From: Ceratotherium simum simum
Taxonomy: Eukaryota > Chordata > Mammalia > Perissodactyla > Rhinocerotidae
Assembly (NCBI RefSeq): GCF_000283155.1
Contig: NW_004454177.1
Coordinates: 29,963,013 to 30,027,012 of the forward strand
Reading direction: 5' to 3'
Length of the DNA: 64,000 nt
Of this stretch, positions 6,678 to 59,289 are shown one piece after another; within the stretch, counting starts at the first letter, position 1, and each line of letters begins with the position of its first letter. The position numbers and the translations under genes are program-made. A model generated the notes under the pieces. It saw only the letters and a program-made list of their open reading frames with translations. It searched no databases and was not told the origin of the DNA.

Positions 6678-6814
6678 AGTAGTTTCTAACTCATGATTTA
6701 GTATGTTAATGGTTAAAAATAATAAAATGTTTTCCAATATGTTCAGAAAGAATTGCTCTCCTCTCTGTCTACAACACAGTAATAAAAAAGAAGAAAAACC
6801 ACATCTTTTCATAA

Positions 6815-36292: not shown

Positions 36293-36553
36293 AGAGTGGT
36301 TTAACAGTTTGAAACTGTCACTATTTGCAGATGACATGATTTTATATATAGAAACCCTAAAGAATCCACCAAAAAAATTTTAGAAGTAATGAACGAATAC
36401 AGTAAAGTTGCAGGATACAAAATCAACATACAAAAATCAGTTGCATTTCTATTCACTAACAACAAAGTAGCATAAAGAGAAATTAAGAACATAATCCCAT
36501 TTAAAATTGCAACAAAAAGAGTAAAATACCTAGGAATAAATTTAACCAAAGAG

Positions 36554-36946
36554 GTGAAAGATCTGTACACTGAAAATTCTAAAACATCATTGAAAGAAAT
36601 TGAAGAAGGCACAAAGAAATGGAAAGATATTCCATGTTCTTGGATTGGAAGAGTTAACATACTTAAAATGTCCATACTTCCTAAAGCAATCTACAGATTC
36701 ATTGCAATCCCTATCAAAGTTCCAACAACATTTTTCACAGAAGCAGAACAAAGAATCCTAAAATTTATATGGAACAACAAAAGACCCCGAATAGCTAAAG
36801 GAGTCCTGAGAAAAAAGAACAAAGCTGGAGGTATCACACTCCCTGATTTCAAAATATGCTACAAAGCTATAGTGACCAAAACAGCATGGTACTGGCACAA
36901 AAACAGACACACAGATAATGGAACAGAATCGAGAGCCCAGAAATAA
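36554..36946 (+). pseudogene. L1 ORF2 thumb-region remnant
   Basis: A 130-residue frame of L1 ORF2 after the reverse transcriptase active site, with [37 protein letters not shown] and [18 protein letters not shown]. These are hallmark L1 ORF2 segments. Further frames at 37268-37627 (partly from the ERE), 37739-37993 (which holds the Cys-rich C-terminal region [21 protein letters not shown]) and 37986-38261 are parts of the same gene, separated by frameshifts and the ERE. Not functional. Confidence 0.85.
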
Positions 36947-37116
36947 ACCCACACATCTATGGGCAGCTATTTTTCGACTAGGGAGCCAAGAACATACAAT
37001 GGAGAAAGGAAAGTCTCTTCAATAAATGGTGTTGGGAAAAGTGGACAGCCACATGTAAAAGAATAAAAGTAGACCATTATCTTACACCATACACAAAAAT
37101 TAATTCAAAATGGATT

Positions 37117-37330
37117 GAAGACTTGAGGGCCAGCCTGGTGGCACAGCAGTTATGTGTGCACGCTCCGCTGCAGTGGCCCGGGATTCGCAGGTTCAGATCC
37201 CGGGCGCACACCGATGCACCGCTTGTCAAACCGTGCTGTGGCGGCGTCCTATATAAAGTAGAGGAAGATGGGCATGGATGTTAGCCCAGGGCGAATCTTC
37301 CTCACAAAGAAAAAAAAAAAAGACTTAAAT
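37117..37330 (+). mobile_element. ERE SINE inside L1
   Basis: The SINE is 37127-37320 (194 bp). It begins GGGCCAGCCTGGTGGC, contains a B-box-like GGTTCAGATCC at 37190-37200 and ends in an A-run. 'GAAGACTTGA' before and 'AAAGACTTAA' after it form a slightly degraded target duplication, and L1 ORF2 text continues across it. CpG sites such as CGCTCCGCTG are retained. Confidence 0.92.
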
Positions 37331-38497
37331 GTAAGACCTGAAACCATAAAACTTCTAGAAGAAAACACAGGCAGTATGCTCTTCAACATCAGTCTTAGAA
37401 GCATATTTTCAAGTACCATGTCTGACCGGGCAAGAGAAACAATAGAAAATATAAACAAATGTGACTACTTAAAACTAAAACGCTTCTGCACAGCAAAGGA
37501 AAACAACAACAAAATGAAAAGACGACTTAACAATTGGGAGAAGATATTTGTAAACCATATATCTGTTAAGGGGTTAATATCCAAAATATATAAAGAACTC
37601 AAACATCTCAACAACAAAAAAAACTAACAACTCAGTTAAAAAATAGGCAAAAGATCTGACCAGACATTTCTCCAAAGAAGATATACAGATGGTCAACAGG
37701 CACATAATAGATGTTCAACATCATTATCTATCAGAGAAATGCAAATCAAAACCACAATGAGATATCACCTCACCCCCATCAGAATGGCTATAATTAACAA
37801 AACAGGAAATAACAAGTGTTTGAGAGGATGTGGAGAAAACGAACTCATACACTGCCAGTGGGAGTGCAAACCGGTGCAGCCACTATGGAAAACAGTATGG
37901 AGATTCCTCAAAAAATTAATAATAGAACTACCATACGATCCAGCTATTCCACTGCTGGGTATTTACCCAAACCATGAAAACCTGAATGAGTAAAGATACA
38001 TGCACCCCTATGTTCATTGCAGCATTATTCACAATAGCCAAGACTTGGAAGCAACCTAGGTGCCCATCAACGGACAAGTGGATAAAGAAGATGTGGTATA
38101 TATACACGATGGACTATTACTCAGCCATGAAAAACAACGAAATCTGGCCATTTTTGAGGCCAAGGTCTACATGGGTAGACCTTGAGGGTATTATGCTAAG
38201 TGAAATAAGTCAGAGAGAGAAAGTCAAATACTGTATGATCTCACTCATAAATAGACAATAAAAACAACAACAATCACATAGAGACGGAGACTGAATTGTT
38301 GGTTACCAGAGGGGAAGTGGGGAAAGAGGAGGGCAAAAGAGGTAATTAGGCACATGCGTGTGGTGATGGATTATAATTAGTCTTTGGGTGGTGAACATGA
38401 TTTAATCTACACAGAAATTGAAATATAATGATGAACACCTGAAATTTATATAATGTAAACCAATGTTACCTCAATATAAAAAAAAAAAGAGTGGTTT

Positions 38498-39077
38498 GAA
38501 TCATAGAAAAAAAGAAAATCCCAATGATATTGATCCTAGAACTCTCTGATTCCCTACCCGAGCTATTAGAAACACTTACAAAATTGAATAAGGGAATTAA
38601 TTATAGCCATTTGTTAATTTCACCTTCTCTTGAACCCAAAGATCCTTGAGAAATAAAACTCAGCCAGAGAAAGTCTGAAATGGCTCCTCCAGAGGTTTGC
38701 AAGAGGCACTATGTGTAGTTGGGCAAAGCATGGGTTCTAGATCTGGACTGCCTAGGTTCAGTTCCCAGCTCTATCACTCACCTGCTATGTGACAGAAGGC
38801 AAGTTATTCAATATCTCTGTGCCTCAGTTTCCTTATCTGTAAAGTGGGGTAACAATAGTTTTTATTTCATTGGATTGTTGTGAAAAAAGAATGAGTTAAT
38901 AAAAGTAGAGCACAAAACAGCATCCGCACTCAAGAACTTTAAAATCATTAGCTATTATTATCTAAAGAAAGAGACTTCTCAGCTTTTGTGTTCCCTCAGT
39001 ATCTCTTCCCAGTTGAATCTTATGAAAGATGTTAATATCTGTATGGTGCTGCTAATTCAAAATTTCATGAAGGACTA
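38498..39077 (+). repeat. MIR SINE, sense, in otherwise unassigned sequence
   Basis: 38700-38955 is a well-preserved sense MIR: 'agcatgggttctagatctggactgcctaggttcagttcccagctct', 'gtgcctcagtttccttatctgtaaa' and 'tggattgttgtgaaa'. The rest of the interval shows no gene. The block ends where the duplicated segment begins at 39078. Confidence 0.75.
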
Positions 39078-39249
39078 TATCCAAAAGATAAATTAAAAAG
39101 TTTAAGTGGAGGCAAGACGATCTGGCAATAGGAGATTTGGGTTCTATCCCTGACTCACTAAAGACTTGTTTGACATTACAAAATCAAAGCACATCTCTTG
39201 GGCTGTCTGTCTCATTAGTTAATTAACACTTTGGAATAGGTCAGCATAC

Positions 39250-40369
39250 CCCAAAGCATGTGCTATAAGAATTTGCAGTGATGATTATATTCTTTTGAAA
39301 TATTTTCATATGCGCTTTCATAACCTATAAATTTGTGTTACTGTGTACCATCCAACCCGTTGAGTCAATGTCCTTGGTCCCCCCAGGGTGAAAGTAAATT
39401 CTGCCTGGAACTAAGTGATCCTTCTTTAGGTTTGAATCACAAAATTGACTTCATTACTTTTTCCAAATCAATCTCAAGGCAATAGTATAGAGAATAAAGT
39501 TTTGTCCCAGGAGGAAAAGGATTTCTAAAATTCTAAGCTAATCTTACATATAACAACATCAATAAAAAAGTTCTTTATGGCTGTTGGAGTGACAAAAGGG
39601 AGAGAACTCAAGTAGGGGAAGCAAGACAAGAGATGCATGTGTCAGGACATCGACCTAGTTGGGGAGTGAGGATAGGCTACAGGCTTTGCTTGTCAGATAG
39701 TTTGAGGAAAAAGTTAAAAGCTTCCCTCATGCGCCAACCTGGGGATGAAGCTTCAGGGTAGATAACAGCAACAAGTATAGTTCAGCAAAAAGCAGTCCTG
39801 AGTTTACACTCCTTAACCACCTTCAATTCTGATCTAGTGTGAAAATGCCCCAGAATTTTCCATATGCCCAAGGAGGGTAAGGTGGGGCATATGTGAAAAG
39901 CAGCTGATTAAGGAACCAATGATCCTTCCGCAGAGTGACCATGGCGAGGGAAGAGATGACCCCTTGTAATGGAATAAATAGCCTTGCTTAGGGACTAAAT
40001 GCAAGACATGTCAATATATATGAGTGTGCAGCACTAGCAAGAGCTGAGGTAAAGTCAGTTAGCAAAAGAAGGCCAAATAGCTCAACCTGGGCCAAACAAT
40101 AAACTCGAAGGTCACCAGCCACACTCCAGGAAAACCCAGCACAAGGAACCAAGGGGCCAGAGCAGTCACCCCATAGCGGAGGCTGGCAAGAATTCAGAGG
40201 AAGGAGCACAGACCCCATTGCTCCAAGAGGTGACATAAGCAACCCTATCCTTACCCATACAGCCAGATGTCAATTTGAGATTGCATAAAATATCCTCCTT
40301 TTCTACAGATTCATAATTCGTATTAGCAAATTCAAGATTTTGAGATACCCTACAGCAGAAATCTGTTCA
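39250..40369. other. No gene seen (first duplicate copy)
   Basis: No supported coding frame. The 84-residue minus-strand frame 39988-40242 has no recognisable domain, and its exact duplicate at 44738-44992 follows from the DNA duplication, not from conservation. Confidence 0.4.
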
Positions 40370-40810
40370 GATGTTTTTGACTCCTGCTATAGTTTTGTCT
40401 GCTAACCCTACTTTCCCAGGCGTTACTTTTGGTTACAGATGTCTCCCCCAAGCCACAGGGGTGGGAATACGTATCTGTACTCCATGGCACAAGAATTGGT
40501 CTAGGAATGGTCCTGTGACTCAACCAGGGTCAATCAAATCCTTCAATAGCGTTTTCTATCTTGAAGTGGTGAGGAAGAGCCCTTTGTCTTCGCTGGTTGC
40601 AAACCCCAAAAATATCAATTTGGAGCTCACTGTAGCCATTGTGTGCAAGCTATCCTGAGACATTCTACAGAGAGAAGCAAAGACCAGAGAGAAAAAGCAA
40701 GTGAGCCAAGGTTTTAAGCCTGTGGTTGATCTCTTCCCTTCCTGGTTACAATAGTTTGAGTTGGAGTTTTTGTCACTTGCAAACAAAGGATCCAAACCAA
40801 GAGGCACTTA
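40370..40810 (+). repeat. Possible MaLR-like LTR (first duplicate copy)
   Basis: Text 'cctgtgactcaaccagggtcaatcaaatcc' followed later by 'tttgagttggagtttttgtcacttgcaaacaaaggatcc' resembles the 3' half of a MaLR-type LTR. Start uncertain. The duplicate is at 45120-45560. Confidence 0.4.
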
Positions 40811-41694
40811 GGTTTTTGTTTCGGTTTGGAAAAAAACTATTAAATCAAGTAATATACTAATGGAAATGCTGATTTTAACTATGTGACATCTAAATTTTTT
40901 TTTTTTAATTTCTATGATAGGAGCAAAAGCTAGTGCTTACAAGCACAGAAAGGTGATCTCCTGGCCAGAGTAAGAAATCCCCTTCACCAGTGACAGGCAT
41001 AGTGCTATTTGTCTTTAAAATGCTATATTAATGAGAAATTTGAATCCAGACATTTTTAAATCTCCATCATTGTCCTCCATTACTTCACCATTAATGGAAA
41101 TGGCAAAAAGCTCACTAAAAATTACTTCCAGAATACGAAATGGATATTATACTGTTTAAATGGATGTCATATAAAAATAATTTGCTTTAATCATAGCACA
41201 AACGATTGCTATGATGCCATATTCATTGTGAACCTTAGGGATTTCTTCATTTAGAGTAGAATAAATTTTGACTAGGCCTAAGTGCTTTTTGCAAAAAAAT
41301 AAATCCACATAACCCAGTACATTAAAAATACAACCAGGTGTGAGTGGCTTTAAAAAAATAAATTACGTCAAGAAATATTACCCAGCTGTGTTTCAGAATT
41401 TCAAGACATCTTAAGATATATTCAGGCATTAAGGGCTCAATAATACTCAAATTATGTTTTCCTGTGTCTTTTGTCCCTAATTTAAAACCTATTTACAAGA
41501 AAACTGAAGACAAGCATGCCTGGTTACATATATTTAATTTATTAAAAAAATCTTGCTTAGTAAAATTTTTGTATGATATCATGCAGCCTTTGATATGATC
41601 ATGGAATTTTTTCAAAAGTAATTTTTTTATCCATTAAAAAAATGTAAAACATGAACATCAGAGATTTAAATTCCATTCTTGTGGGCACCTAGTT

Positions 41695-41915
41695 TAGTGG
41701 AAAAGGCCGAAGCAAGGGAGTCTGATGAAACTCAGTTCAAACCTCAGTCTTGCCAATTGAGGGGTTATGGAACCTTAAGGAAGTTAATGAACTTCTCATA
41801 ATCTCATTAGCTGATCCGTAAAATGGATATTACAAGACCTACTACATAAGAGTGTCAAGCATATTAAATGTTGTTGTAAGTGAAACTGCCTAGTGCAAAC
41901 CAGGCACTCTTTCCT
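41695..41915 (+). repeat. MIR SINE, sense (first duplicate copy)
   Basis: 'agtttagtggaaaaggccgaagc', 'cagttcaaacctcagtcttgcc', 'aacttctcataatctcattagctgatccgtaaaatgg' and 'ccaggcactc' in sense MIR order. Duplicate at 46445-46665. Confidence 0.65.
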
Positions 41916-42404
41916 CAGGCTTCTACTATTGATCCAGGAATAATGAAGGAACACACTTTACCTTCTCAGGACAGTTTTATTTCTCAAATTCTAAGTGTTT
42001 TTTGTGTGTGTGTGTGTAGTATTTAAATTCACCTTAACACAATTATGAATTCCAAAACATGTAGGTAATTCTATCAAATCACAGATGTACAGCTAGCAAA
42101 TTCAGCAAATATTTAATGGGGTTCTGTTAGGATATCCTGTGGAGTAGGTGTCTACTGACAACAGAGCCAGTCACTGTGTCCTAGATAAGTCACTCTTATT
42201 GCAAGATATCCAGCAATTCTTGGCTATTTCCTAATATTTATGTATCTTCATAATATCATTCCAATAAATTCATTTTCTGCTTATATGAAGCAGAATTGGT
42301 GGTTTTGTTTGTGATTGGGGCCTCTAAGTAATTCAGAGATATTTTGGAGTAACAAAGTAAATTTAGAGAACTGAAAAGCAAGACATAAAGCTCTTTTGAG
42401 GTTT

Positions 42405-42970
42405 AGACAGAGATCAAGATGGCAGAGTAGAAAGATCCTCAGCTCACCTTCTTCCATGAATACACCAAAACTACAACTACATATAGAACAACTATCACTG
42501 AGAACGACCTGAAGACTAGCAGAACAGATTTTCCACAGCTAAGGATATGAAGAAAAAGCCACATTGAGATAGGTGGGACGAGTGGAGACATGGTCTAGAC
42601 AGGACCCACAACCCCAGCAGAGTGACCGACAAGCAGGAGGGTTATCACAACCGCAGAGGTCCTCCCAAACAAGCAAGGGGCCAGAGCTCCACATAGGGCT
42701 CCCCAACCTGGGGGATCTGCACTGGGAAAATGAGCCTCCATAATGTCTGGCTTTGAAAAACAGCGGGGCTTATGTCCAGCCAAGCTGGAGGGCTCTAGGA
42801 AACCGAGACTCCACTCTGAAAAGGCATATGCACAAATTCACTCGCTCCAGCTCCAGCACTGAGGCAGCAGTTTGAAAAGTGCCTGGATTATATGTGAAGG
42901 AGACTCATTGACTAATTTTAGAGCATGTGCCCGAGTCATGGGGATCTATTGGAACTTTCTCCCCGAACAA
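42405..42970 (+). mobile_element. L1 5'UTR fragment (first duplicate copy)
   Basis: 'agatcaagatggcagagtagaaagatcctcagctcacc' is the classic L1M 5' start, followed by 'ctggctttgaaaaacagcggggctta', 'ctctaggaaaccgagactccactctgaaaaggc' and 'cagcagtttgaaaagtgcctgg'. Duplicate at 47155-47720. Confidence 0.75.
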
Positions 42971-42974
42971 AAAT

Positions 42975-43630
42975 GGAGGCAGATGCCATTTCTTTTTTTA
43001 TTTTTAAATATGTAATTTTTAAAAATTATTTTATTGAGGCAATATTGGCTTATAACAATGTGTAAATCTCAGGTGTACATTATTATATTTCAGTTTCTGT
43101 GTAGACTGCATCATGTTCCCCAAAAATAGTCCAGTTTTTATCCATCACTGTAGACCTGTGCCCCTTTACTCCTTTTGCCCTCCCTCTCCCTCTTCCCCTC
43201 TGATAACCACAAATCTGTTATTCTTATCTGTGTGTTTATCTTCCACATATGAGTTAAATCATACCGTATTTGTCTTTGTCTGTCTGACATTTCGCTCAGT
43301 GTAATACCCTGAAGGTCCATCCATGTTGTCACAAATGGCACAATTTTATCTTTTTATGACTGAGTACTACTCCGTTCTGTATATACACCACATCTTCTTT
43401 ATCCATTCATCCGTTGATGGGCGCTTGGGTTGCTTCTACGTCTTGGCTATCGTGAATAATTCTGCAATGAACACAGGGGTGCAGAAATCTTTTTGAGTTC
43501 AAGTTCTTTAGATAAAAACCCAGTAGTGGAATAGCTGGATAATATGGTATTTTTAACTTTTTGAGAAATCTGCATACTATTTTCCATAGAGGCTGCACCA
43601 GTTTGCATTCCCACCAACAGTATATGAGGG
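42975..43630 (-). mobile_element. Antisense L1 3' end, cut by the gap (first duplicate copy)
   Basis: Starts in a T/A-rich tail, then 'ttattgaggcaatattggcttataac' and antisense ORF2 end ('ggctgcaccagtttgcattcccaccaac'). It stops at the N run. The intact version is at 47725-50240. Confidence 0.9.
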
Positions 43631-43730
43631 NNNNNNNNNNNNNNNNNNNNNNNNNNNNNNNNNNNNNNNNNNNNNNNNNNNNNNNNNNNNNNNNNNNNNN
43701 NNNNNNNNNNNNNNNNNNNNNNNNNNNNNN
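43631..43730. other. Assembly gap, exactly 100 N
   Basis: One hundred N, the usual placeholder for a gap of unknown length. The flanking sequence predicts that about 7,771 bases equivalent to 48381-56151 are missing here. Confidence 0.97.
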
Positions 43731-43827
43731 TAAAATGAATATGTTAAGGTGAGGCCCTAATCTAATCTGACTGATGCCTCATAAGAAGAGGAAGAAACAC
43801 CAGAGGCAAGCATACAAAGAGGAAATT
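43731..43827. other. Tail-to-head duplication junction
   Basis: 43731-43825 (95 bp) matches 56152-56246 base for base as far as I read. 43826-43827 (TT) belongs to neither partner. From 43828 the sequence matches 39078 onward. So the end of one unit is joined to the start of the next with two extra bases and no evident homology at the join. Confidence 0.9.
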
Positions 43828-43859
43828 TATCCAAAAGATAAATTAAAAAGTTTAAGTGG

Positions 43860-46800
43860 AGGCAAGACGATCTGGCAATAGGAGATTTGGGTTCTATCCC
43901 TGACTCACTAAAGACTTGTTTGACATTACAAAATCAAAGCACATCTCTTGGGCTGTCTGTCTCATTAGTTAATTAACACTTTGGAATAGGTCAGCATACC
44001 CCAAAGCATGTGCTATAAGAATTTGCAGTGATGATTATATTCTTTTGAAATATTTTCATATGCGCTTTCATAACCTATAAATTTGTGTTACTGTGTACCA
44101 TCCAACCCGTTGAGTCAATGTCCTTGGTCCCCCCAGGGTGAAAGTAAATTCTGCCTGGAACTAAGTGATCCTTCTTTAGGTTTGAATCACAAAATTGACT
44201 TCATTACTTTTTCCAAATCAATCTCAAGGCAATAGTATAGAGAATAAAGTTTTGTCCCAGGAGGAAAAGGATTTCTAAAATTCTAAGCTAATCTTACATA
44301 TAACAACATCAATAAAAAAGTTCTTTATGGCTGTTGGAGTGACAAAAGGGAGAGAACTCAAGTAGGGGAAGCAAGACAAGAGATGCATGTGTCAGGACAT
44401 CGACCTAGTTGGGGAGTGAGGATAGGCTACAGGCTTTGCTTGTCAGATAGTTTGAGGAAAAAGTTAAAAGCTTCCCTCATGCGCCAACCTGGGGATGAAG
44501 CTTCAGGGTAGATAACAGCAACAAGTATAGTTCAGCAAAAAGCAGTCCTGAGTTTACACTCCTTAACCACCTTCAATTCTGATCTAGTGTGAAAATGCCC
44601 CAGAATTTTCCATATGCCCAAGGAGGGTAAGGTGGGGCATATGTGAAAAGCAGCTGATTAAGGAACCAATGATCCTTCCGCAGAGTGACCATGGCGAGGG
44701 AAGAGATGACCCCTTGTAATGGAATAAATAGCCTTGCTTAGGGACTAAATGCAAGACATGTCAATATATATGAGTGTGCAGCACTAGCAAGAGCTGAGGT
44801 AAAGTCAGTTAGCAAAAGAAGGCCAAATAGCTCAACCTGGGCCAAACAATAAACTCGAAGGTCACCAGCCACACTCCAGGAAAACCCAGCACAAGGAACC
44901 AAGGGGCCAGAGCAGTCACCCCATAGCGGAGGCTGGCAAGAATTCAGAGGAAGGAGCACAGACCCCATTGCTCCAAGAGGTGACATAAGCAACCCTATCC
45001 TTACCCATACAGCCAGATGTCAATTTGAGATTGCATAAAATATCCTCCTTTTCTACAGATTCATAATTCGTATTAGCAAATTCAAGATTTTGAGATACCC
45101 TACAGCAGAAATCTGTTCAGATGTTTTTGACTCCTGCTATAGTTTTGTCTGCTAACCCTACTTTCCCAGGCGTTACTTTTGGTTACAGATGTCTCCCCCA
45201 AGCCACAGGGGTGGGAATACGTATCTGTACTCCATGGCACAAGAATTGGTCTAGGAATGGTCCTGTGACTCAACCAGGGTCAATCAAATCCTTCAATAGC
45301 GTTTTCTATCTTGAAGTGGTGAGGAAGAGCCCTTTGTCTTCGCTGGTTGCAAACCCCAAAAATATCAATTTGGAGCTCACTGTAGCCATTGTGTGCAAGC
45401 TATCCTGAGACATTCTACAGAGAGAAGCAAAGACCAGAGAGAAAAAGCAAGTGAGCCAAGGTTTTAAGCCTGTGGTTGATCTCTTCCCTTCCTGGTTACA
45501 ATAGTTTGAGTTGGAGTTTTTGTCACTTGCAAACAAAGGATCCAAACCAAGAGGCACTTAGGTTTTTGTTTCGGTTTGGAAAAAAACTATTAAATCAAGT
45601 AATATACTAATGGAAATGCTGATTTTAACTATGTGACATCTAAATTTTTTTTTTTTAATTTCTATGATAGGAGCAAAAGCTAGTGCTTACAAGCACAGAA
45701 AGGTGATCTCCTGGCCAGAGTAAGAAATCCCCTTCACCAGTGACAGGCATAGTGCTATTTGTCTTTAAAATGCTATATTAATGAGAAATTTGAATCCAGA
45801 CATTTTTAAATCTCCATCATTGTCCTCCATTACTTCACCATTAATGGAAATGGCAAAAAGCTCACTAAAAATTACTTCCAGAATACGAAATGGATATTAT
45901 ACTGTTTAAATGGATGTCATATAAAAATAATTTGCTTTAATCATAGCACAAACGATTGCTATGATGCCATATTCATTGTGAACCTTAGGGATTTCTTCAT
46001 TTAGAGTAGAATAAATTTTGACTAGGCCTAAGTGCTTTTTGCAAAAAAATAAATCCACATAACCCAGTACATTAAAAATACAACCAGGTGTGAGTGGCTT
46101 TAAAAAAATAAATTACGTCAAGAAATATTACCCAGCTGTGTTTCAGAATTTCAAGACATCTTAAGATATATTCAGGCATTAAGGGCTCAATAATACTCAA
46201 ATTATGTTTTCCTGTGTCTTTTGTCCCTAATTTAAAACCTATTTACAAGAAAACTGAAGACAAGCATGCCTGGTTACATATATTTAATTTATTAAAAAAA
46301 TCTTGCTTAGTAAAATTTTTGTATGATATCATGCAGCCTTTGATATGATCATGGAATTTTTTCAAAAGTAATTTTTTTATCCATTAAAAAAATGTAAAAC
46401 ATGAACATCAGAGATTTAAATTCCATTCTTGTGGGCACCTAGTTTAGTGGAAAAGGCCGAAGCAAGGGAGTCTGATGAAACTCAGTTCAAACCTCAGTCT
46501 TGCCAATTGAGGGGTTATGGAACCTTAAGGAAGTTAATGAACTTCTCATAATCTCATTAGCTGATCCGTAAAATGGATATTACAAGACCTACTACATAAG
46601 AGTGTCAAGCATATTAAATGTTGTTGTAAGTGAAACTGCCTAGTGCAAACCAGGCACTCTTTCCTCAGGCTTCTACTATTGATCCAGGAATAATGAAGGA
46701 ACACACTTTACCTTCTCAGGACAGTTTTATTTCTCAAATTCTAAGTGTTTTTTGTGTGTGTGTGTGTAGTATTTAAATTCACCTTAACACAATTATGAAT

Positions 46801-47154
46801 TCCAAAACATGTAGGTAATTCTATCAAATCACAGATGTACAGCTAGCAAATTCAGCAAATATTTAATGGGGTTCTGTTAGGATATCCTGTGGAGTAGGTG
46901 TCTACTGACAACAGAGCCAGTCACTGTGTCCTAGATAAGTCACTCTTATTGCAAGATATCCAGCAATTCTTGGCTATTTCCTAATATTTATGTATCTTCA
47001 TAATATCATTCCAATAAATTCATTTTCTGCTTATATGAAGCAGAATTGGTGGTTTTGTTTGTGATTGGGGCCTCTAAGTAATTCAGAGATATTTTGGAGT
47101 AACAAAGTAAATTTAGAGAACTGAAAAGCAAGACATAAAGCTCTTTTGAGGTTT
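43860..47154. repeat. Left part of second copy: MIR, LTR-like and unassigned sequence
   Basis: MIR-like text at 43865-44000, possible LTR at 45120-45560, MIR at 46445-46665, GT run at 46754-46767. No gene; the frames at 44738-44992, 45121-45408 and 45306-45557 are exact repeats of those in the first copy and show no domain. Confidence 0.7.
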
Positions 47155-47720
47155 AGACAGAGATCAAGATGGCAGAGTAGAAAGATCCTCAGCTCACCTT
47201 CTTCCATGAATACACCAAAACTACAACTACATATAGAACAACTATCACTGAGAACGACCTGAAGACTAGCAGAACAGATTTTCCACAGCTAAGGATATGA
47301 AGAAAAAGCCACATTGAGATAGGTGGGACGAGTGGAGACATGGTCTAGACAGGACCCACAACCCCAGCAGAGTGACCGACAAGCAGGAGGGTTATCACAA
47401 CCGCAGAGGTCCTCCCAAACAAGCAAGGGGCCAGAGCTCCACATAGGGCTCCCCAACCTGGGGGATCTGCACTGGGAAAATGAGCCTCCATAATGTCTGG
47501 CTTTGAAAAACAGCGGGGCTTATGTCCAGCCAAGCTGGAGGGCTCTAGGAAACCGAGACTCCACTCTGAAAAGGCATATGCACAAATTCACTCGCTCCAG
47601 CTCCAGCACTGAGGCAGCAGTTTGAAAAGTGCCTGGATTATATGTGAAGGAGACTCATTGACTAATTTTAGAGCATGTGCCCGAGTCATGGGGATCTATT
47701 GGAACTTTCTCCCCGAACAA
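47155..47720 (+). mobile_element. L1 5'UTR fragment (second copy)
   Basis: Same as 42405-42970. It is in the same orientation as the L1 at 50250-54853 and could be that element's 5' end, with the minus-strand L1 at 47725-50240 inserted between. That link is an inference. Confidence 0.7.
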
Positions 47721-48156
47721 AAATGGAGGCAGATGCCATTTCTTTTTTTATTTTTAAATATGTAATTTTTAAAAATTATTTTATTGAGGCAATATTGGCT
47801 TATAACAATGTGTAAATCTCAGGTGTACATTATTATATTTCAGTTTCTGTGTAGACTGCATCATGTTCCCCAAAAATAGTCCAGTTTTTATCCATCACTG
47901 TAGACCTGTGCCCCTTTACTCCTTTTGCCCTCCCTCTCCCTCTTCCCCTCTGATAACCACAAATCTGTTATTCTTATCTGTGTGTTTATCTTCCACATAT
48001 GAGTTAAATCATACCGTATTTGTCTTTGTCTGTCTGACATTTCGCTCAGTGTAATACCCTGAAGGTCCATCCATGTTGTCACAAATGGCACAATTTTATC
48101 TTTTTATGACTGAGTACTACTCCGTTCTGTATATACACCACATCTTCTTTATCCAT

Positions 48157-48486
48157 TCATCCGTTGATGGGCGCTTGGGTTGCTTCTACGTCTTGGCTAT
48201 CGTGAATAATTCTGCAATGAACACAGGGGTGCAGAAATCTTTTTGAGTTCAAGTTCTTTAGATAAAAACCCAGTAGTGGAATAGCTGGATAATATGGTAT
48301 TTTTAACTTTTTGAGAAATCTGCATACTATTTTCCATAGAGGCTGCACCAGTTTGCATTCCCACCAACAGTATATGAGGGCTCTCTTTTCTCCACATCCT
48401 CTCCAACACTTGTTATTTCTTGTCTTGTTAATTATAGCCATTCTGATGGGTGTGAGGTGATATCTCATTGTAGTTTTGATTTGCAT
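48157..48486 (-). pseudogene. L1 ORF2 C-terminal remnant
   Basis: A 109-residue minus-strand frame of the Cys-rich ORF2 C-terminus: [18 protein letters not shown], then NKCWRGCG and [16 protein letters not shown]. The Cys residues of this segment contribute to RNA binding in L1 ORF2. Broken from the upstream ORF2 frame by frameshifts. Confidence 0.85.
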
Positions 48487-49052
48487 TTCCTAAATAATTA
48501 GTGATGTTGAATGTCTTTTCATGTGCCAGTTGGCCATCTGTAAATCTTCTTTAGAAAACTGTCTGTTTATATCCTCTGCCCACTTTTTGATCGAGTTATT
48601 CATTTTTTTGTTGTTGAGTTGTATGAGTTCTTTTTATATTTTGGAAATTAAACCCCTGTTGGATAAACGATTTGCAAATATTTTCTCCCAGTTCGTGGAT
48701 TGTCTTTTCATTTTGGTGATGTGTGCAGAAGCTTTTTAGTCTGATGTAGTCCCAGTTTTTTTTTGTTTTTTTCTGTTGCCTGAGTAGATATGGTATTTAA
48801 AAAGATACTGCTAAGACCAATGTCAAAGAGCATACTGCCTATGTTTTCTTCTAGGAGTTTTAGGTCTTACATTCAAGTCTTTAATCCATTTTAAGTTAAT
48901 TTTTTTGTATCATGTAAGATAATGGTCTACTTTCATTCTTTTGCACATGACTGTCCAGTTTTCCTAACATGGTTTATTGAAGAGACTTTCATTTCTCTAT
49001 TGTATGTTCTTGGCTCCTTTGTCAAAGATTAGCTGTCCATAGATGTGTGGGT

Positions 49053-49574
49053 TTATTTCTGGGCTCTTGATTCTGTTCCAATGATCTGGTGTCTGTTTTT
49101 GTGCCAGTAGCATGCTGTTTTGGTTACTATAGCTTTGTATATTTTAAAATCAGGGAGTGTGATACCTCCAGCTTTGTTCTTTTTTCTCAGGATTGCTTTA
49201 GTTATTTGGGGTCTTTTGTTGTTCCATATAAATTTTAGGATTCTTTGGGCTATTTTCATTAGAAATGTCCTTGGGATTCTGATTGGGATTGCATTAAATC
49301 TGTAGATTTCCTTAGGTAATATGGACATTCTAAGTATGTTTGTTTTTCCAATCCATGAGGACAGAACTTCTTTCCATTTCTTTATATCTTCTTCAATTTC
49401 TTTCACTAATATCTTACAGTTTTCAGTGTATAGGTCTTTCACCTCCTTAGTTAAATTTATTCTTAGGTATTTTATTCTTTTTCTTGTCAGAGTAAATGGG
49501 ATTGTATTCCTGAGTTCTCTTTCTGCTAGTTTGTTGTTAGTGTATAGAAATACAATTAATCTTTCTATGTTCAT
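49053..49574 (-). pseudogene. L1 ORF2 remnant, longest reading frame in the window
   Basis: 173 residues on the minus strand covering the ORF2 thumb and beyond: [38 protein letters not shown] and [18 protein letters not shown]. The family protein is about 1,275 residues, so this is about one seventh. It lacks the endonuclease and active-site Asp boxes. Its length reflects the relative youth of this L1, not function. Confidence 0.9.
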
Positions 49575-50701
49575 TTTGTACCCTGCAACTTTACTGTATT
49601 CATTAACTATTTTAAATAGCTTTTGGTGGATTCCTTAGTGTTTTCTCTATATAGAATCATGTCATTGGCAAAGAGTGACAGTTACACTTCTTCCTTTCCA
49701 ATTTGGATACACCTTATTTTTTTTTCTTGCCTAATTGCTCTGGCTAGGACTTCAAATACTATGTTGAATAAAAGCAGCAAGAGTGGGCATCCTTATCTTC
49801 TTCCTGTTCTTAGAGGTTTCAATCTCTTTAGTGAAGTACTCCTTCTGTTCATTAATTTTATTCCTAAGCTCATTGAACTTCCTTCTGAGTTTTCTTATAA
49901 CTCATTCAGTTTCTTCATGACAGCTATTTTGAATTCTCTGTCAGTTAGATTGTAATCTTCTGTGCCTTCAAGTTTGGTTTCTGGAGGCTTACTGTTCTCT
50001 TCGTGTTCTGCCATGTTTCAGTGCCCTCCTTGTGCCACTTGTGCCACTGAGGTTTCTGCTGCCTTGCTGCTTATGATTTCACTGCAGTCTCCCATGTCAC
50101 CACCAGGGTCACTAGGCCACAAGCACTTCTGCTTCCAGCATATCTTAAGTCTCATGTTCCCCAAGTGGATCTACATGGGCTCCCCAGACTTGGGTGCTGC
50201 TGCCTCATGCACTACCTGCACTGCTGCCCCAGCATTGTCTGAGTTATTATGAAAGAAGAAAATCTCACTGTTAGTGGCAAACATATAGTAAAAGTAGTGA
50301 ATCAAACTTTGTACAGCTAGTTTTAAGGTTAAAAGACAAAAGTAGTAAAATCATCTACATCTATAATAATTAGTTAAGGGACACACAAAATTAAAAGATG
50401 CAAAATATGACATCAAAAATATAAAATGTGGGGGTTGGTGAGTGCAAATGGAGTGCATTTAGAATGTGGTTGAACTTAAGCAATCATCAACTTAAAATAG
50501 ACTTCTATATACAACGTTTGTTATATATGAAGCTCATGGTAACCATAAACCAAAAATCTGTAATAGATATGCACAAAAAAACAAAGAGAAAGGAATCTGA
50601 ACATAACACTAAAGAAAGTCATCAAGCCACAAGGGAAGAGAGCAAGAGAAGAAAAAAGGAATAGAGAAGAGCTACAAAAACAACCAGAAAACAATTAACA
50701 A

Positions 50702-51480
50702 AATGTCAATAAGTACATACCTATCAATAATTACTTTAAATGTAAATGGATTAAATTCCCCAATCAAAAGACATAGGGTGGCTGAGTGGATAAAAAAACA
50801 AGATATGCTGCCTACAATAGACTCATTTCAGATCTAAAGACACATACAGACTGAAAGTGAAGAGATGGAAAAAGACATTCCATGCAAATGGAAACAAGAA
50901 GAAAGCTGGGGTAGCCATACTTATATCAGACAAAATAGACTTTAAAACAAAGACTTTAACAAGAGACAACAAAGGGCCTTGCATAATGAAAAGGGGATCA
51001 ATCTAAGAAGAAGACATAACACTTGTATCTATGCATTCAACATAGGAACACTTATATACATAGCACTTACATACATGTTAGCAGACATAAAGGGAGAAAT
51101 TGACAGTAATCTAATAATAGGAGGGGACTTTAATACCCCACTTAAATCAATGGATAGAGTATCCAGACACAAAATTAGCAAGGAAACATTGGCCTTAAAT
51201 GACACATTAGACAAGAAGGATTAAATAGATATGTACAAAACACTCCATACAAAAACAGCAGAATACACATTCTTCTCAAGTGCACAAGGAACATTCCCCA
51301 GGCTATATCACATGTTAGGCAACAAAACAAGTCTCAATAAATTTAAGAAGATTGAAATGATATCAACCATCTTTTCCTACCACAATGGTATGAAACTAGA
51401 AATCAATTACAAGAAGAAAACTGCAAAAAACACAATCATGTGGAGGCCAAACAACATGCTACTAAGCAACCAGTGAGTCA
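50702..51480 (+). pseudogene. L1 ORF2 endonuclease remnant
   Basis: Reads MSISTYLSIITLNVNGLNSP at the start, then breaks. 50979-51224 holds LIIGGDFNTPL, with the conserved Asp-Phe-Asn metal and catalytic site. 51231-51476 holds AEYTFFSSAQGTFPRLYHMLGNKTS, where the usual Asp-His pair has become Tyr-His. In-frame stops at several points and loss of a catalytic Asp make it inactive. The family enzyme nicks target DNA at T/A-rich sites. Confidence 0.85.
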
Positions 51481-52213
51481 ATGAGGAAATCAAAGAGGAA
51501 ATAAAAAACTACCTTGGAACAAATGAAAACAGAAACACAACTTTCCAAAATCTATGGGATACAACAAAAGCAGTTCTAAGTTTATAATGATATAGGCCTA
51601 CCTCAGAAAACAAGAAAAATGCCAAATAACCTAAAAAATATAAATCTAACCTTACACCTAAAGGAACACCTAAAAAAAGAATAACAAACATAGCCCAAAG
51701 TGAGTAGATGGAAAAAGGAAATAATAAAGAACAGAGTAAAAATAAATAATACAGAGACTAAAAAACAATAGAAAAGATCAATGAAACTAAGAGCTGGTTC
51801 TTTGCAAAGATAAACCAAATTGATAAAATCTTTAGCCAGACTCATCAAGAAAAAAAGAGAGAGAACCCAAATAAATAAAATCAGAAATGAAAGAGGAGAA
51901 GTTACAATCGACACCACAGAAATACAAACGATCATAACAGATTACTATGAACAATTATACACCAACAAATGGGACAACCTAGCAGAAATGGATAAATTCT
52001 TAGAAACATACAATCTTTGAAGACTGAATCAGGAAGAAATAGAAAATCTAAACACACTGATTACTAGTATATGAAATTGAATCAGTAATCAAAAAACTCC
52101 CAACAAACAAAAGTCCAGGATCAGATAGCTTCACAGGTAAATTCTACCAAACATTTAAAGAAGAGTTAGTACCCATCCTTCTCAAACTATTCCAAAAAAT
52201 TAAAGAGGAAGGA

Positions 52214-53510
52214 ATGCTTCTGAACTCCTTCTACAAAGCCAGCATTACCCTGATAACAAATCTGGACAAAAAGAAAATTATAAAAAGGCCAATATCCCTG
52301 ATGAACATAGATGCAAAAACCCTTGACAAAATGTTAGCAAACCAAATTCAACAATACATTAAAAGAACCATATACCACAACCAAGTAGGATTTATTGCAG
52401 GGATGCAAAGATGGTTCAATATCCACAAATCAATCAATGTGATTCACCACATTAACAAAATAAAGGACAAAAATCATATGATCATCTCAATAGATGCAGA
52501 AAAAGCTTTTGACAAAGTTCAACATCTATTTAGATAAAAACTCTCAACAAAGGAGTATAAAGAGAATATACCTCAACATAATAAAGGCCATATATGGCAA
52601 ACCCACAGCTAACATCATACTCAATGGTAAAAAACTGAAAGCATTTCCTCTAAGATGAGGAACAAGACAAGGATGCCCACTCTTGCCACTTTTATTCAAC
52701 ATAGGATTGGAAGTCCTAGCCACAACAATCAGACAAGAAAAAGAAGTAAAAGGCATGCAAATAGGAAAGGAATAATTAAAACTGTGTCTATTTGCAGATG
52801 ACATGATATGATATTATATAGAGAAAACCCTAAAGACTCCACACACACACACAGAAAAAAACCTGTTAGAATTAATGAATGACTTCAGAAAATTGCAGGA
52901 TACAAAATCAATATACAAAAAAAGTAAGTTGCTTTTCTATACACTAATAACAAATAATCAGAAAGAGAGATTAATAAAACCATCCCATTTACAATTACAT
53001 CAAAAAGAATAAAATACCAGGAACAAATTTAGCCAAGGAGATGAAAGACCTGCACTCCGAAAACTATAAGACATTGATGAAAGAAATTAAAGATGACACA
53101 AATAAATGGAAAGATATATCATGCTCATGGATTGGAAGAATTAATATCATTAAAATGTCCATACTACCCAAAGCAAGCTACGGATTCAATGCAATCTCTA
53201 TGAAAATACCAATGGCATTTTTCACAGAACTAGAACAAAGAATCCTAAAATTTGTACGGAACCACCAAAGATCCCAATAGCCAAAGCAATCTTGAGAAAG
53301 AATAATAAAGCTGGAGGTATCACACTCCCTGATTTGAAACTATATTACAAAGCTATAGTAATCAAAACACTATGGTGCTGGCATGAAAACAGACACATAG
53401 ATCAATGGAATAGAATAGAAAGCCCAGAAATAAACCTATGCATAAATGGTCAATTAATCTATGACAAAGGAGGCAAGAATACAATGGGGAAAAGACAGTC
53501 TCTTCAATAA
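52214..53510 (+). pseudogene. L1 ORF2 reverse transcriptase remnant
   Basis: 52214-52537 encodes the fingers and first Asp box ([33 protein letters not shown]). 52788-52802 encodes FADD. 53041-53280 ([20 protein letters not shown]) and 53292-53510 ([19 protein letters not shown]) cover the thumb. At least four frameshifts or stops separate them. Confidence 0.88.
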
Positions 53511-54853
53511 ATGATGTTGGGAAAACTGGACAGCTCTGTGCAAAAGAATGAAACTGGACCACTTTCTTACACCTTATACAAAAATAAACTCAAAATGGAT
53601 TAAAGACTTAAATGTAAGACATGAAGCCATAAAACTCTTAGAAGAAAATATAGGCAATAAGCTCTTTGATGTCAGTCTTAGCAATATTTTTTGGATCTGT
53701 CTCCTCAGGCAAAGGCAACCAAAGCAAAAATAAACAAGTGAGACTGTATCAAGCTCAAAAGCTTTTTCATAGCAAAGGAAACCATCAACAAAATGAAAAG
53801 GCAACCTACTGAATGGGAGAAGATATTTGCAAATCATACATCTGAATAGGTGTTAATATCCAAAATATATAAAGAATTCATATAATTCAATAGCAAAAAA
53901 AAACCAAATAATCTGATAAAATATGGGCAAAGGACATAAATAGACATTCTTCCAAAGAAGACATACAGATGGCCAACACATATATGAAAAGATGCTCAAC
54001 ATCAATAATCATCAGGGAAATGCAAATCAAAACCACAGTGATATATCACCTCACACCTGTCAGAATGGCTAATACCAAAAAGACAATAAACAACAAGTGC
54101 TGGTGAGGATGTGGAGGAAAGGTAACAATTGGACACTATTGGTATAGACACTATGGAAAATTGTTTGAAATTTCCTCAAAAAATTAAAACTAGAACTACC
54201 ATACAATTCAGCGGTTTCACTTCTGGTATTTACTGTAAGAAAACAAAAACACTAATTTGAAAAGATGTATACACCCCTATGTTCATTGCAGCATTATCTA
54301 CAATAGCCAAGATAAGGAAGCTACCTAAGTGTCCATCAATAGACAAATGGATAAAAGATGCAGTATATATACACAATGGAATATTACTCAGCCATGAAAA
54401 AGAATGAAATCTTGGCATTTGCAACAACATGGATGGACATAGAGGGTACTATGCTGAGTGAAATAAGTCATTCAGAGAAAGACAAATACCATACAATTTC
54501 AGTTATATGTGAAATTTAAAAAACAATACAAACAAAACAAAACAGAAGCAGACTTATAGATACAGGAAACAAACTGGTGCTTACCCGAGAAGGGAGGGAT
54601 TGGGGGATGGGTGAAATAGGTGACAGGGATTAAGAGGTACAAACTTCCAGTCATAAAATAAATAAATCACAGGGATGTAATGTACAGCATAGGGAATGTA
54701 GTCAATAATATTGTAATAACTTTATATAGAGACAGATGGTTACTAGACTTGTCATGGTGATCGTTTCGTAAAGTACATAAATATCAAATCACTATGTTGT
54801 ACACCTGAAACTAATATAATATTGTAGGTCAAGTGTACTTCAGTCAAAAAAAT

Positions 54854-56033
54854 AGCTCTATGAAATTTTGAGAAGAGCACTCAGGTAAAAAGTCAGACGA
54901 GTATAAACTTTAAGGATAGATAGGACTTAAGTGGATGTGAGCGAAAATTGTCTCATTTAATAGAAGAGGGAATCCAGATCTAGAGGGTTGGATTAAATTA
55001 CAGAATCTCAATGACTCTCTAATAATGGAGCAGATGATTTTCAGATAAATAAATAAATGGACAGACAGAGAGAGAGGGAGAGATAACAAATGAAAGAATA
55101 CAAAATGAGAAAAAATATACTCATTTAGCAACTTGAGTTTCCTCAAAGGGAAAAATCATCTTTCTGAGGAAATATGTACATAACCTGTCTAGGTGGGGAG
55201 AGAAGATGAAATCCCCAGAATCATACTGAATTTAAAAAATGGTTATTGCTAAGTTGTTCTGTTTGATAAAAGGGTGTGAATTTTGAAATTCATAGGTGAA
55301 ATCCTATGTGATTCTCTTTTTGGAGAGCGAGGAATCAGGGAGGCTGGTATTGCACGGTGGGATGGGGAGAACGGGGAGGAATTCCTCAGAAAGCCAGACA
55401 CAGAGGAAAATGGAGCAAGGTCATGTCAAATAGGGATATTTCAAACTAAATGCCATGCGCTGTGCAGTTTGAGCCCACTCTAGAGCCTTCACAGCTTCAG
55501 TCTCAACTTCCAAAAACATAAAAACCTTGAACGGGATAGATTTCTTATAGATACTCCCAGGTTATGGGGCTGTGTTCTGTTCTCCGGTTGATGAGAGTCC
55601 AGAAAAGTGTCAGGCCATGTAGACTAGAGAACAGCCCAGTGTTACAGAGTAAACATCCAATTAACTTTTGTTAAAGTAAAAGAGGATAAATATATAATAA
55701 GTTTAAAATTTAATACATCTCTAGTGTTTTAACTCATAAATTGACTTGTCAAGGAATATCAGGCTTTGGGACTGGTTGATGTAATTTAATATGGGCTTAA
55801 CTAAGAAAAATTCGCAAAGATCATACGTATCCCTTGTCTTATAATTATATAGTACCCACAGACTTTGATGGCTCAGAAGTTTTGGCGATTTCAAGGCTAA
55901 AGATTTAAAACATGTTTGACTATTATGCCTCAGCACTAATATATTTATCACTGTCGTAGGATGATAGAAATCAGTTAGCACAACCTTCATTTTATAGCCT
56001 TGAAGTGTTTAGACTTATGACCTTCTGAGGTTC
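54854..56033. other. No gene or named repeat seen
   Basis: No supported coding frame. A short AAAT/GACA/GAGA simple stretch lies at 55046-55085. The frames 55283-55483 and 55721-55990 have no recognisable domain. Confidence 0.35.
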
Positions 56034-56435
56034 CATTTTGTTATGAGCTGAATTGTATCCCCTAAAATTCATTTGTCGAAGTCCCAACCTCCAGTACCTC
56101 ACAATGTAACTGTATTTGGAGATAAAGAAGTCTTTAAAGTAGTGATTAAGTTAAAATGAATATGTTAAGGTGAGGCCCTAATCTAATCTGACTGATGCCT
56201 CATAAGAAGAGGAAGAAACACCAGAGGCAAGCATACAAAGAGGAAAGGCCGTGTGAGGACACAGCCAGAAGGCAGCCATCTGCAAGCCAAAGAGAGAGAA
56301 GAAAACTAACTTGCCTGCAACACCTTGATCTCGGACTTCTAGCCTCTAGAATTGTGAGAACGTACATTTCTGTTGTTTAAGCCACCCAGTCAGTGGTATT
56401 TTTTTATGGAAGCTCTAGCAAACTAATACACATTT
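56034..56435 (+). mobile_element. Solo MaLR (MLT1-like) LTR with 5-bp target duplication
   Basis: The LTR is 56039-56430 (392 bp). It starts TGTTATGAGCTGAATTG and ends AACTAATACA, with CATTT at 56034-56038 and 56431-56435. Internal text 'caacaccttgatctcggacttctagcct' and 'tttctgttgtttaagccacccagt' is characteristic of MaLR LTRs. The right breakpoint of the tandem duplication falls inside it at 56246. The 61-residue frame 56195-56380 is not a gene. Confidence 0.9.
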
Positions 56436-58984
56436 AATATTTGTATTCTGTCTTTTGAAATCTATACATAAGCTAGCTGAAAAAGCATCACAGTAATGCC
56501 AGTAGTGAGAATACAAAAGAAAAATAAGTAGAAGTGGAAACAGCTTCTAATAAGACTGGCGGTAACAGACCACTTAGGGAAATGGGAGATTAGAGAGTCA
56601 ATATCAAGATTAGTGATCTATGTGGGGCAGAGCAGGATGGGGCCAGAGGAGAGGTATGCCTGGGAGATGAAAGGATTCCATATACCTTATGGTTACCCTA
56701 AAAGATAGCATAGTGTTGCAATTAATACCTCAATCCTAAACAATGAGCATAATTAACATTACTTGTAAGGGCAGAAATTGGAGCTTTATCTTGCCTGTTA
56801 AAATAAAGATAATTTATAATAAGGTATAAATATGTACTCTGTGAGGATTGTTTAGTAAGAGTGTGTGATGTCTATGTTACAGTCAAATCAAAATTAGAAA
56901 TTAGGTATAATTATTGTTGCTATAATTGTTTCCTAATTAAAATTATCATTAAGCTAACATTGTTTCAAAATATACAGAAGCTGTGCAAATGAGGTTATAA
57001 ATAAGAGGACTACCATGGGCCTACGAGAGCCCTGGGATATTATAAAATTGATTCAAGCATTATACACTTGAAAATCTGTCATTTCATTATGGAATTAAGA
57101 AGAAAAATACATTTAGGCTATTTAATTCTCAACATGCATGGTTTTTATTTTCCAATATTCAATAACAATAAAATATCTTTAGTATGACAAATATTTTACA
57201 CAAATGAAAACACAATGTGATGAAATGGGATTTTATGCACTTTATGCAACGCAAGTGAAATATACAAATGAAGAAGAAAATTGGTGAGGTAAGAAAGGAG
57301 GGAAAAGAAGAGGAAAAAAACAGGAAATCCTCTTTTTTAAGGAGAACAAGAGATCATAATATCATTACATTTCTTTGATACTAACCCAGAGTGAAAAGAA
57401 GCAATGAAGTATCACCATCAATATACTACCAATCCTACAAGATTTTTATTTTTTTAAACAATTCTCAGCAGTTGAGGAGAGTATACAGATACTGATTTCC
57501 ATCTGGGGAGATACTATAAAATTAAATGGTATACAGGACAAGCTACATAATCTGCAGGACCCAGTGGAAAATAAAAATGCTGGGCCCCTTATTCAAAAAT
57601 GTTTAATAATTTCAGGATGGAAAACAGCTGAGCATGTTTAAATCAAGCATGAGGCCTTTCTAAGCAAGGGGTCCTGTGCAACCGCACAGGTCATGTACCC
57701 GAGAAGCCAGCCCTTATGATGAGTTTAGAAGTATGACTTATTAAGAATCAGGCATCCACGAATCTCATTTGGACCAAGGTGACAAGGATAGCCATTAAAT
57801 TCCAGGCCACAGTATATCAAGGGGCATACTGAAAATCCCATTATCATTTGTGAGCAGGGCCTTCTAGAGACATATATTCCGGGAAGGCCCTTGTTCTGTC
57901 CATAGAGGGAGTTAGCTGATGAACTTATGCCCAAATCCACTTCCCTGGTTACTGAAGTACAATGCCATTATCGTACAGAATGCCTTGACAAGTGCTGTCT
58001 CCTCTTTCGTTACAGAATTCTCTTGCTTCCAACATTTAATAAGTATTTTATGGAATTTGTCAGTCACTTAATTAAAGACCTACTTTCATTCTCTGGGTTG
58101 TGCTCCCTAACCTCCCTAACTCCTCCCTACCTTATTATTTTTTCTGAAAGAAGGAACTGAAAAGGACTTATCAAAATTCCTAGCAGAGATATTATGAAAA
58201 ACTTTCTAAAAAGTCTAATTTTAGCTTTAATTGTTGTCTAATATATGAGATATTACATGGAAGTCAGATTTCATTACAAAATAAAGATCAGATAAAACCA
58301 GATCTGACTCAAAAAGTCACATTCGCTATTCTTATACTGTAGAGATATCCCTGAAATTAAAAGGCCCTGAGGAAGCCAGTTTTGCAACAGTGCTTATGGA
58401 AACAACGTGGAAATAAATTACAAGGAAGTTTTTTCAAAACTGATGCTGAGTGAAACAAGTGTTGGAAGGAAACATACCTTACTATTCCCTCTGCTTGTAT
58501 CCGGATGGTAGGAGAATGACTGATCTGTTCGCCCTTCTTTTCTACTTACCCTATATCTTAAAAATTATTTTTAATGATTAATTTTATAATATAAAATAAG
58601 CATTGAGGGCACAAAAATGAAAATTTCAACTTCATTAAATGGAATTGGATTGATTGCGTGACTACTATTGAAGAAGCCGAGTATGGTTTCATTCTTTGAG
58701 GAGATCTTACCACTTGTGCTTGTAGATGGATGTAAGTGTAAGAATAAATTTATGTAAGTTAATCCCAGCTACGTCCTGGTGATTGCCTAACAAAAGAAAG
58801 GTAAAGTTGCATTGCGCTCTTGCACTGCTTGTTACACAGCACTGTCATTCTTTGTGTTTCAGTCACGAAGCGCAGCACCTAAGCACAATTGAGGTAGTGC
58901 CAAATAGACTGTTACGTGTGGTAAATAAGGATAATTATTACTATTCCTGATTTGTTTTCTTTCATTCTAAGGATAAAAGTGTCA
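56436..58984. other. No gene seen; one unclassified repeat-like segment
   Basis: About 2.5 kb with no supported coding frame. 57540-57720 ('gcaggacccagtggaaaataaaaatgctgggccc...gcaagggg tcctgtgcaacc') reads like an ancient interspersed repeat that I cannot name. The rest is AT-rich. Confidence 0.4.
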
Positions 58985-59289
58985 AGAGGTCAACAAAGAT
59001 GGCTCCTGAATTCCCCTCTGAATGTATAGCTACACGTGGAGAAATTCCTTCTGACAGAAATCCAGAAATTAGCTGAGTGACTCCTATACACATCAGGTAA
59101 ATGAGAAAATATCCACATCAAAATGGAAAGGAAAGGCTGAGACACACTCTCACCATAAACCCCACCGCCTGGTACAGCATCATGCAATCAAGAGGGAACT
59201 CTCAACTTCCGGCTTCCCCTGAGGAGCAAAGGGTTTACACTCCACATTAAGCACCGTGGTTTTTAAGACTCCCGCCCAAAAGATGGACC

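What the first reader, a model, noticed from the sequence alone, without database searches (positions are those of the whole stretch)
39078..56246. Tandem duplication of a 12.4-kb unit, recovered from a 95-bp junction fragment
Seen directly: 39078-43630 equals 43828-48380, and the 95 bases between the N gap and the second copy (43731-43825) equal 56152-56246. An interspersed repeat cannot explain this, because the 95 bp ends at an arbitrary point inside an LTR and is joined to an arbitrary point in non-repeat DNA. A tail-to-head tandem duplication of 43828-56246 explains both facts at once. Whether it is fixed, polymorphic or an assembly product cannot be read from one sequence.
Basis: partly seen in the sequence, partly recalled or inferred. 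Interest (0 to 1): 0.75.

Follow-up and report, generated by a model that had tools for sequence, protein, structure and literature searches.

The report
Half-assembled tandem duplication, non-horse mammal
A draft mammalian genome shows a 4.5-kb stretch twice across a gap, most likely a partly assembled ordinary tandem duplication, although an assembly error cannot be excluded without the reads.

Summary
One tail-to-head duplication fits: unit 12,419 bp, 7,771 bp of the first copy unseen.

Three corrections. (1) Not a horse: horse myoglobin matches at only 92% and 88% over exons 2 and 3. Scaffold sizes resemble the white rhinoceros draft CerSimSim1.0 (inference). (2) 95 bp equals K-1 for K=96, the ALLPATHS-LG default, so contig 2 probably starts at a graph branch. 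The junction k-mers were then in the reads, but nothing upstream of 95 bp is seen, so the unit length is inferred. (3) In such a graph the two copies may be one sequence written twice, so identity says little about age.

I put a real tandem duplication at about 0.6 and an overlapping-contig artefact with a spurious head at about 0.25. Only reads or newer assemblies can decide. Of 9 long ORFs, 7 were checked and one showed a reverse-transcriptase fragment. An ordinary kind of event; low interest.

The parts
39078..43630 (+). First 4553 bp of the duplicated stretch as written at the end of contig 1
   Evidence: Identical to 43828-48380, 0 of 4553 differ; the match stops at a sequence difference on its left
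43631..43730 (.). 100-N gap between two contigs; would hide about 7,771 bp under the tandem reading
   Evidence: Only N run in the window; 7,771 = 48381 to 56151
43731..43825 (+). 95-bp head of contig 2, copy of the tail of the unit; length equals K-1 for K=96
   Evidence: Identical to 56152-56246; out-branch of the local K=96 graph, absent at K=97 (which restates the 95-bp length)
43826..43827 (+). TT at the junction, continuing neither parent sequence
   Evidence: Side-by-side comparison of the three break sequences
43828..48380 (+). Second writing of the same 4553 bp
43828..56246 (+). Inferred duplicated unit, 12,419 bp, about half interspersed repeat
   Evidence: Boundaries; 53% of it matches other places in the 264-kb region
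47744..49812 (.). LINE-1-like stretch in which contig 1 breaks off (equivalent of 48380)
   Evidence: Repeat-like by cross-match; 39 further scored genomic copies at 89-96% for 48261-48480. The name LINE-1 is recalled
52214..52537 (+). Fragment of a reverse transcriptase
   Evidence: Pfam RVT_1, E 1.1e-13, residues 19-104 of 107; assignment to LINE-1 is recalled
56152..56246 (+). Tail of the unit, inside an LTR-like interspersed repeat
   Evidence: 37 further genomic matches at 79-91% among 40 scored; the family name (ERVL-MaLR type LTR) is recalled

Best explanation
The sequenced animal carries, on one or both chromosomes, a direct tail-to-head tandem duplication of about 12.4 kb (43828-56246) made by non-homologous joining or template switching. 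The short-read assembler folded the two copies into one loop. It wrote the loop's start twice: once after the left flank, as the end of contig 1, and once after the junction branch, as contig 2. It left a 100-N placeholder where about 7.8 kb of the first copy belongs. Shown: the matches, the TT, the absence of shared bases at the break, and the 95-bp head. Inferred: the assembler and its K, that the junction exists in the animal's DNA, that the unit is complete, and the mechanism.
For: Both exact matches and their order follow from one event. The head of contig 2 is exactly 95 bp = K-1 for K=96: with the two contigs cut into K-mers, one out-branch (56152-56246) and one in-branch (39078-39172) appear at each of six K tested up to 96, and the out-branch is gone at 97, 100 and 110 (this restates the 95 bp and is not independent). 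ALLPATHS-LG by default builds its initial unipaths at k=96 (PMC5905499, passage). A predecessor program trusted a K-mer only when each base had enough good scores, default 4 (PMC2784318, passage). A junction path of 97 consecutive 96-mers therefore suggests several molecules rather than one chimera (inference). No shared bases plus a 2-bp insertion is a usual non-recurrent CNV junction (blunt ends, microhomology or small insertions; PMC3447954, passages). Short-read assemblies under-represent or collapse tandem repeats (PMC5518131, passages). The junction sequence matches in full only here among 40 scored hits. The two other exactly-100-N gaps in the 264 kb have no flanking duplication in the stretch held.
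Against: 7,771 bp of the first copy is not in the assembly, and only 95 bp ties the tail to the head. Duplicates flanking a gap are a classic error: overlapping neighbour contigs judged mis-assembled were 13,159 of 13,571 in chimpanzee, 5,698 of 5,947 in chicken, 1,094 of 1,366 in cow and 8 of 22 in dog (PMC2864568, passages). The gap is written as 100 N instead of about 7.8 kb. No read depth was available, and the assembler is not documented in anything I read.
Confidence: 0.6

Rival explanations
1. Assembly artefact: the genome has one copy. Contig 1 and contig 2 overlap by 4553 bp but were not merged because contig 2 carries a 97-bp spurious head from a rare chimeric or circularised library molecule that survived error correction. 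The scaffolder then placed them side by side with a minimum gap.
For: Gaps between duplicated pairs are a listed hallmark of false duplication (PMC9516828, passages), and overlapping contig ends are usually errors (PMC2864568, passages). 100 N is what overlapping contigs would receive if it is a placeholder (inference). Mate-pair circularisation makes exactly this tail-to-head geometry (recalled). Perfect identity is expected if both stretches are the same graph path.
Against: False duplications in that study had median identity 98.1% and few exceeded 99.5%; here it is 100%. A random chimera would seldom land in direct orientation 12.4 kb away (inference). The head and what follows span 97 junction 96-mers, which one 101-base read cannot supply (read length recalled).
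Confidence: 0.25
2. The junction is real but not a simple tandem copy: the head belongs to another allele or a dispersed copy in which a piece ending at 56246 is joined to 39078, with unknown sequence further upstream.
For: If 95 bp = K-1, nothing upstream of the branch is seen.
Against: Needs an extra event; no further exact copy of the 95-mer or of 39078-39240 outside this locus among the 40 scored hits.
Confidence: 0.1
3. Somatic or extrachromosomal circle of 43828-56246 in the sampled cells, giving the same junction without a germline duplication.
For: Circle and tandem junctions are indistinguishable at this length (established knowledge; sequence).
Against: Would need to be abundant enough to pass a k-mer filter (inference); nothing found points to it.
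Confidence: 0.05

Closest known systems
Non-recurrent tandem duplication CNV (direct, tail-to-head)
   Same: Direct orientation, unrelated sequence at the two breakpoints, no shared bases, 2-bp insertion at the junction
   Different: First copy incomplete; no depth; only 95 bp seen on the tail side
False segmental duplication from overlapping contigs (DOC class of Kelley and Salzberg 2010, PMC2864568)
   Same: Neighbouring contigs that share sequence at their ends, separated by a gap
   Different: 100% identity, and a 97-bp head at contig 2 that does not fit contig 1's left flank
Collapsed repeat loop in a K=96 de Bruijn graph (ALLPATHS-LG)
   Same: 95-bp start overlap = K-1; one out-branch and one in-branch
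   Different: That this assembly was made with ALLPATHS-LG is inferred, not read from a record; contig 1's end is not accounted for

Membership tests
Tandem duplication CNV | Novel junction joining the unit's tail to its head in direct orientation | tested here: met
   56246 + TT + 39078 at 43825-43828; 95 bp only on the tail side
Tandem duplication CNV | Two full copies present side by side | tested here: inconclusive
   4553 of 12,419 bp of the first copy plus its last 95 bp are written; 7,771 bp would lie in the gap
Tandem duplication CNV | Raised read depth and reads or pairs across the junction | not testable with these tools
   No reads held
Tandem duplication CNV, non-homologous class | No extended homology between the two breakpoints; blunt, microhomology or small insertion | tested here: met
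   No shared bases; TT inserted
False duplication (overlapping contigs) | Contig ends overlap across a gap | tested here: met
   Last 4553 bp of contig 1 recur in contig 2
False duplication (haplotype type) | Copies differ by allelic divergence (median identity 98.1%) | tested here: not met
   0 of 4553 differ (yardstick)
False duplication (overlapping contigs) | Contig 2 begins inside contig 1's sequence, without a foreign head | tested here: not met
   97-bp head does not match contig 1's left flank
K=96 graph loop | Contig 2 starts exactly K-1 = 95 bases before divergence | tested here: met
   K from PMC5905499; a single instance
K=96 graph loop | Contig 1 also ends at a K=96 branch | tested here: inconclusive
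   Longest exact run back from the break is 13 among 13 other copies (12 of the 38 genomic copies listed plus the one at 61431-61650). The list held the best 40 of 4549 candidates and did not even list the 120 exact bases at contig 1's own end, so a shorter exact match can be missed
Equus genome (finding's premise) | Exons identical or near-identical to horse myoglobin | tested here: not met
   92% over residues 29-106, 88% over 103-153; the third row, 72% over 1-39, holds a stop and probably runs into an intron
White rhinoceros assembly CerSimSim1.0 | Species-specific sequence | not tested
   Beta-globin query was sent eight times and never answered

The most novel reading that the evidence does not exclude
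A recent, still segregating 12.4-kb tandem duplication, private to the sequenced animal or its population and made by non-homologous joining between an LTR and other DNA. The same signature (a contig starting exactly K-1 bases before a novel junction, beside a gap, with a duplicated contig end) could be mined in other drafts made with K=96 to find heterozygous tandem duplications without reads.
Probability: 0.3. Interest if true: 0.3.

Novelty: new member of a known kind. Interest (0 to 1): 0.17.

Why it matters
Locally it matters little: about half of the unit is interspersed repeat and the ORFs checked show only a reverse-transcriptase fragment. Its use is methodological. A 95-bp head read as K-1 would tell graph junctions from plain contig overlap and let old short-read drafts be screened for tandem duplications. 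It also warns that 'identical' duplicates in a de Bruijn assembly say little about age.

Tried and rejected
Interspersed-repeat explanation of the 95 bp: rejected, the 37 other scored matches are at most 91% identical. Haplotype-split false duplication: disfavoured by 100% identity. The break does fall on a base where this L1 copy has C and, of 13 other copies, 12 have T and 1 has G (my notebook entry says 11, a miscount). Genes: 7 of the 9 ORFs of at least 90 aa were scanned against Pfam and one matched, a reverse-transcriptase fragment. The other two, not scanned, are the duplicate of the first (45121-45408) and 49623-49955. Split exons were not sought. Rfam and tRNA scans of the window: nothing at the thresholds used. 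Copy number of other parts of the unit in the genome (54600-56151, 54900-56151 and 45000-47000), a globin family search and a beta-globin species test were sent but did not complete. Paper searches for the assembler of CerSimSim1.0 found none stating it in what I saw (listings; passages).
Full report
What is there. The window is C22:29963013-30027012 of a 2.451-Gb assembly in 339 contigs. Direct comparison confirms every coordinate of the finding: 39078-43630 and 43828-48380 are identical over 4553 bases, 43731-43825 and 56152-56246 over 95 bases. On the sides that face the gap (43631-43730, the window's only N run) both matches are cut off by the gap; on the other sides they stop at a sequence difference. 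At the junction lie two bases, TT, that continue neither parent. The arithmetic of one tail-to-head duplication is exact: unit 43828-56246 = 12,419 bp, of which the first copy shows 4553 bp and its last 95 bp, so 7,771 bp would be missing in the gap. There are no shared bases between the sequence beyond either breakpoint and the junction.

More than chance. In 264 kb around the locus the exact direct repeats of 60 bp or more are 4553, 125, 95, 93, 74, 65 and 63 bp long. A 95-bp exact repeat is therefore not remarkable by length alone. But among the 40 scored genome matches of the first 260 bases of contig 2 (209 candidates), the three at 100% are parts of this locus and the other 37 are partial and 79-91% identical. 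That search skips very common words and scores only the best candidates.

Not a horse. A horse, donkey or zebra should be near 100% (recalled). Repeats in the window look like perissodactyl SINEs (recalled). Contig lengths seen (79.7, 63.2, 30.3, 28.5, 24.2, 22.3, 19.0 Mb and others) fit a scaffold N50 near 26-28 Mb (my interpolation). The southern white rhinoceros draft GCA_000283155.1 (CerSimSim1.0) has 57,823 contigs with contig N50 93 kb (PMC13296254, passages) and 3087 scaffolds (PMC12107126, passages). Its scaffold N50 of about 26 Mb and its assembly with ALLPATHS-LG are recalled. A southern white rhinoceros sequence is credited to Di Palma et al. 2012 (PMC4125168, passage). The 339 contigs held here are fewer than 3087 scaffolds; a size filter would explain that, but I could not check. 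The identification as rhinoceros is therefore an inference; 'not Equus' is the tested part. The beta-globin test meant to settle it did not complete.

What the 95 bp means. ALLPATHS-LG with default settings builds initial unipaths at k-mer size 96 (PMC5905499, passage). Neighbouring edges of a K=96 graph share K-1 = 95 bases (established). I cut 36001-43630 and 43731-60000 into K-mers: at the six K tested up to 96 there is one out-branch and one in-branch; at K=96 they are the 95-mers 56152-56246 and 39078-39172, and at 97, 100 and 110 the out-branch is gone. This restates the 95-bp length in graph terms; it is one instance, and the independent check, a peak at 95 over many contig starts, could not be run. 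If right, contig 2 begins at the vertex where one path goes to the right flank and the other to TT-39078. This supports a junction present in the reads' k-mers, because the path from one vertex to the other is 192 bases, or 97 consecutive 96-mers. In a predecessor program a K-mer is trusted only if each base has enough good scores, default 4 of at least 25 (PMC2784318, passage); that ALLPATHS-LG is comparably strict is inference.

Why identity says little. In such a graph both writings of 39078-43630 may be the same edge. If the copies are real and faithfully written, 0 differences in 4553 bp gives an upper limit of about 3/4553 per site, which at the 2.2e-8 per generation and 25 years used for white rhinoceros (PMC13296254, figure text) is about 370,000 years; but differences could have been lost by the assembler.

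Against. Overlapping ends of neighbouring contigs are usually errors: 13,159 of 13,571 in chimpanzee, 5,698 of 5,947 in chicken, 1,094 of 1,366 in cow, 8 of 22 in dog (PMC2864568, passages), and gaps between copies are a listed hallmark (PMC9516828, passages). Median identity there was 98.1% and few exceeded 99.5%, unlike this case. The 100-N gap is far below 7.8 kb; but mate pairs from the left flank that truly land in copy 1 would be read as landing in contig 2, giving a negative gap and a placeholder (inference), so gap size does not separate the readings. Contig 1 breaks in a LINE-1-like repeat, at a base where this copy has C while of 13 other copies examined 12 have T and 1 has G. No examined copy matches more than 13 bases back from the break, so the graph reading does not yet explain that end. 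The list behind this held the best 40 of 4549 candidates and missed even the 120 exact bases at contig 1's own end, so a shorter exact match elsewhere is not excluded.

Surroundings. Of three exactly-100-N gaps in 264 kb, only this one has flanking duplication in the stretch held; the other two sit at a poly-T and a TA repeat, as in short-read assemblies. About 53% of the unit matches other places in the region; 7 of the 9 ORFs of at least 90 aa were scanned against Pfam and one gave a reverse-transcriptase fragment. Split exons were not sought.

Mechanism. Breakpoints in an LTR-like repeat on one side and unrelated DNA on the other, no shared bases, and a 2-bp insertion point to non-homologous joining or replication template switching rather than recombination between repeats; such junctions are usual for non-recurrent CNVs (PMC3447954, passages). 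Short-read assemblies tend to lose or collapse tandem repeats (PMC5518131, passages).

Verdict. Observation confirmed; interpretation partly supported; a real tandem duplication is more likely than an artefact (about 0.6 against 0.25, my judgement), but neither is shown. Ordinary kind, low interest.

Noticed in passing
48261-48480 and 61431-61650 (minus strand): Two inverted LINE-1-like pieces in the same window are 96% identical (9 mismatches in 220 bases), closer to each other than to the 38 other scored genomic copies (at most 91%).
   Followed up: partly
6566-6678: A 56-bp unit twice in tandem at 98% match.
   Followed up: no
L009 (C22:30032714-30032900): A 62-bp unit repeated exactly about three times, in SINE-like sequence (SINE recalled).
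   Followed up: no
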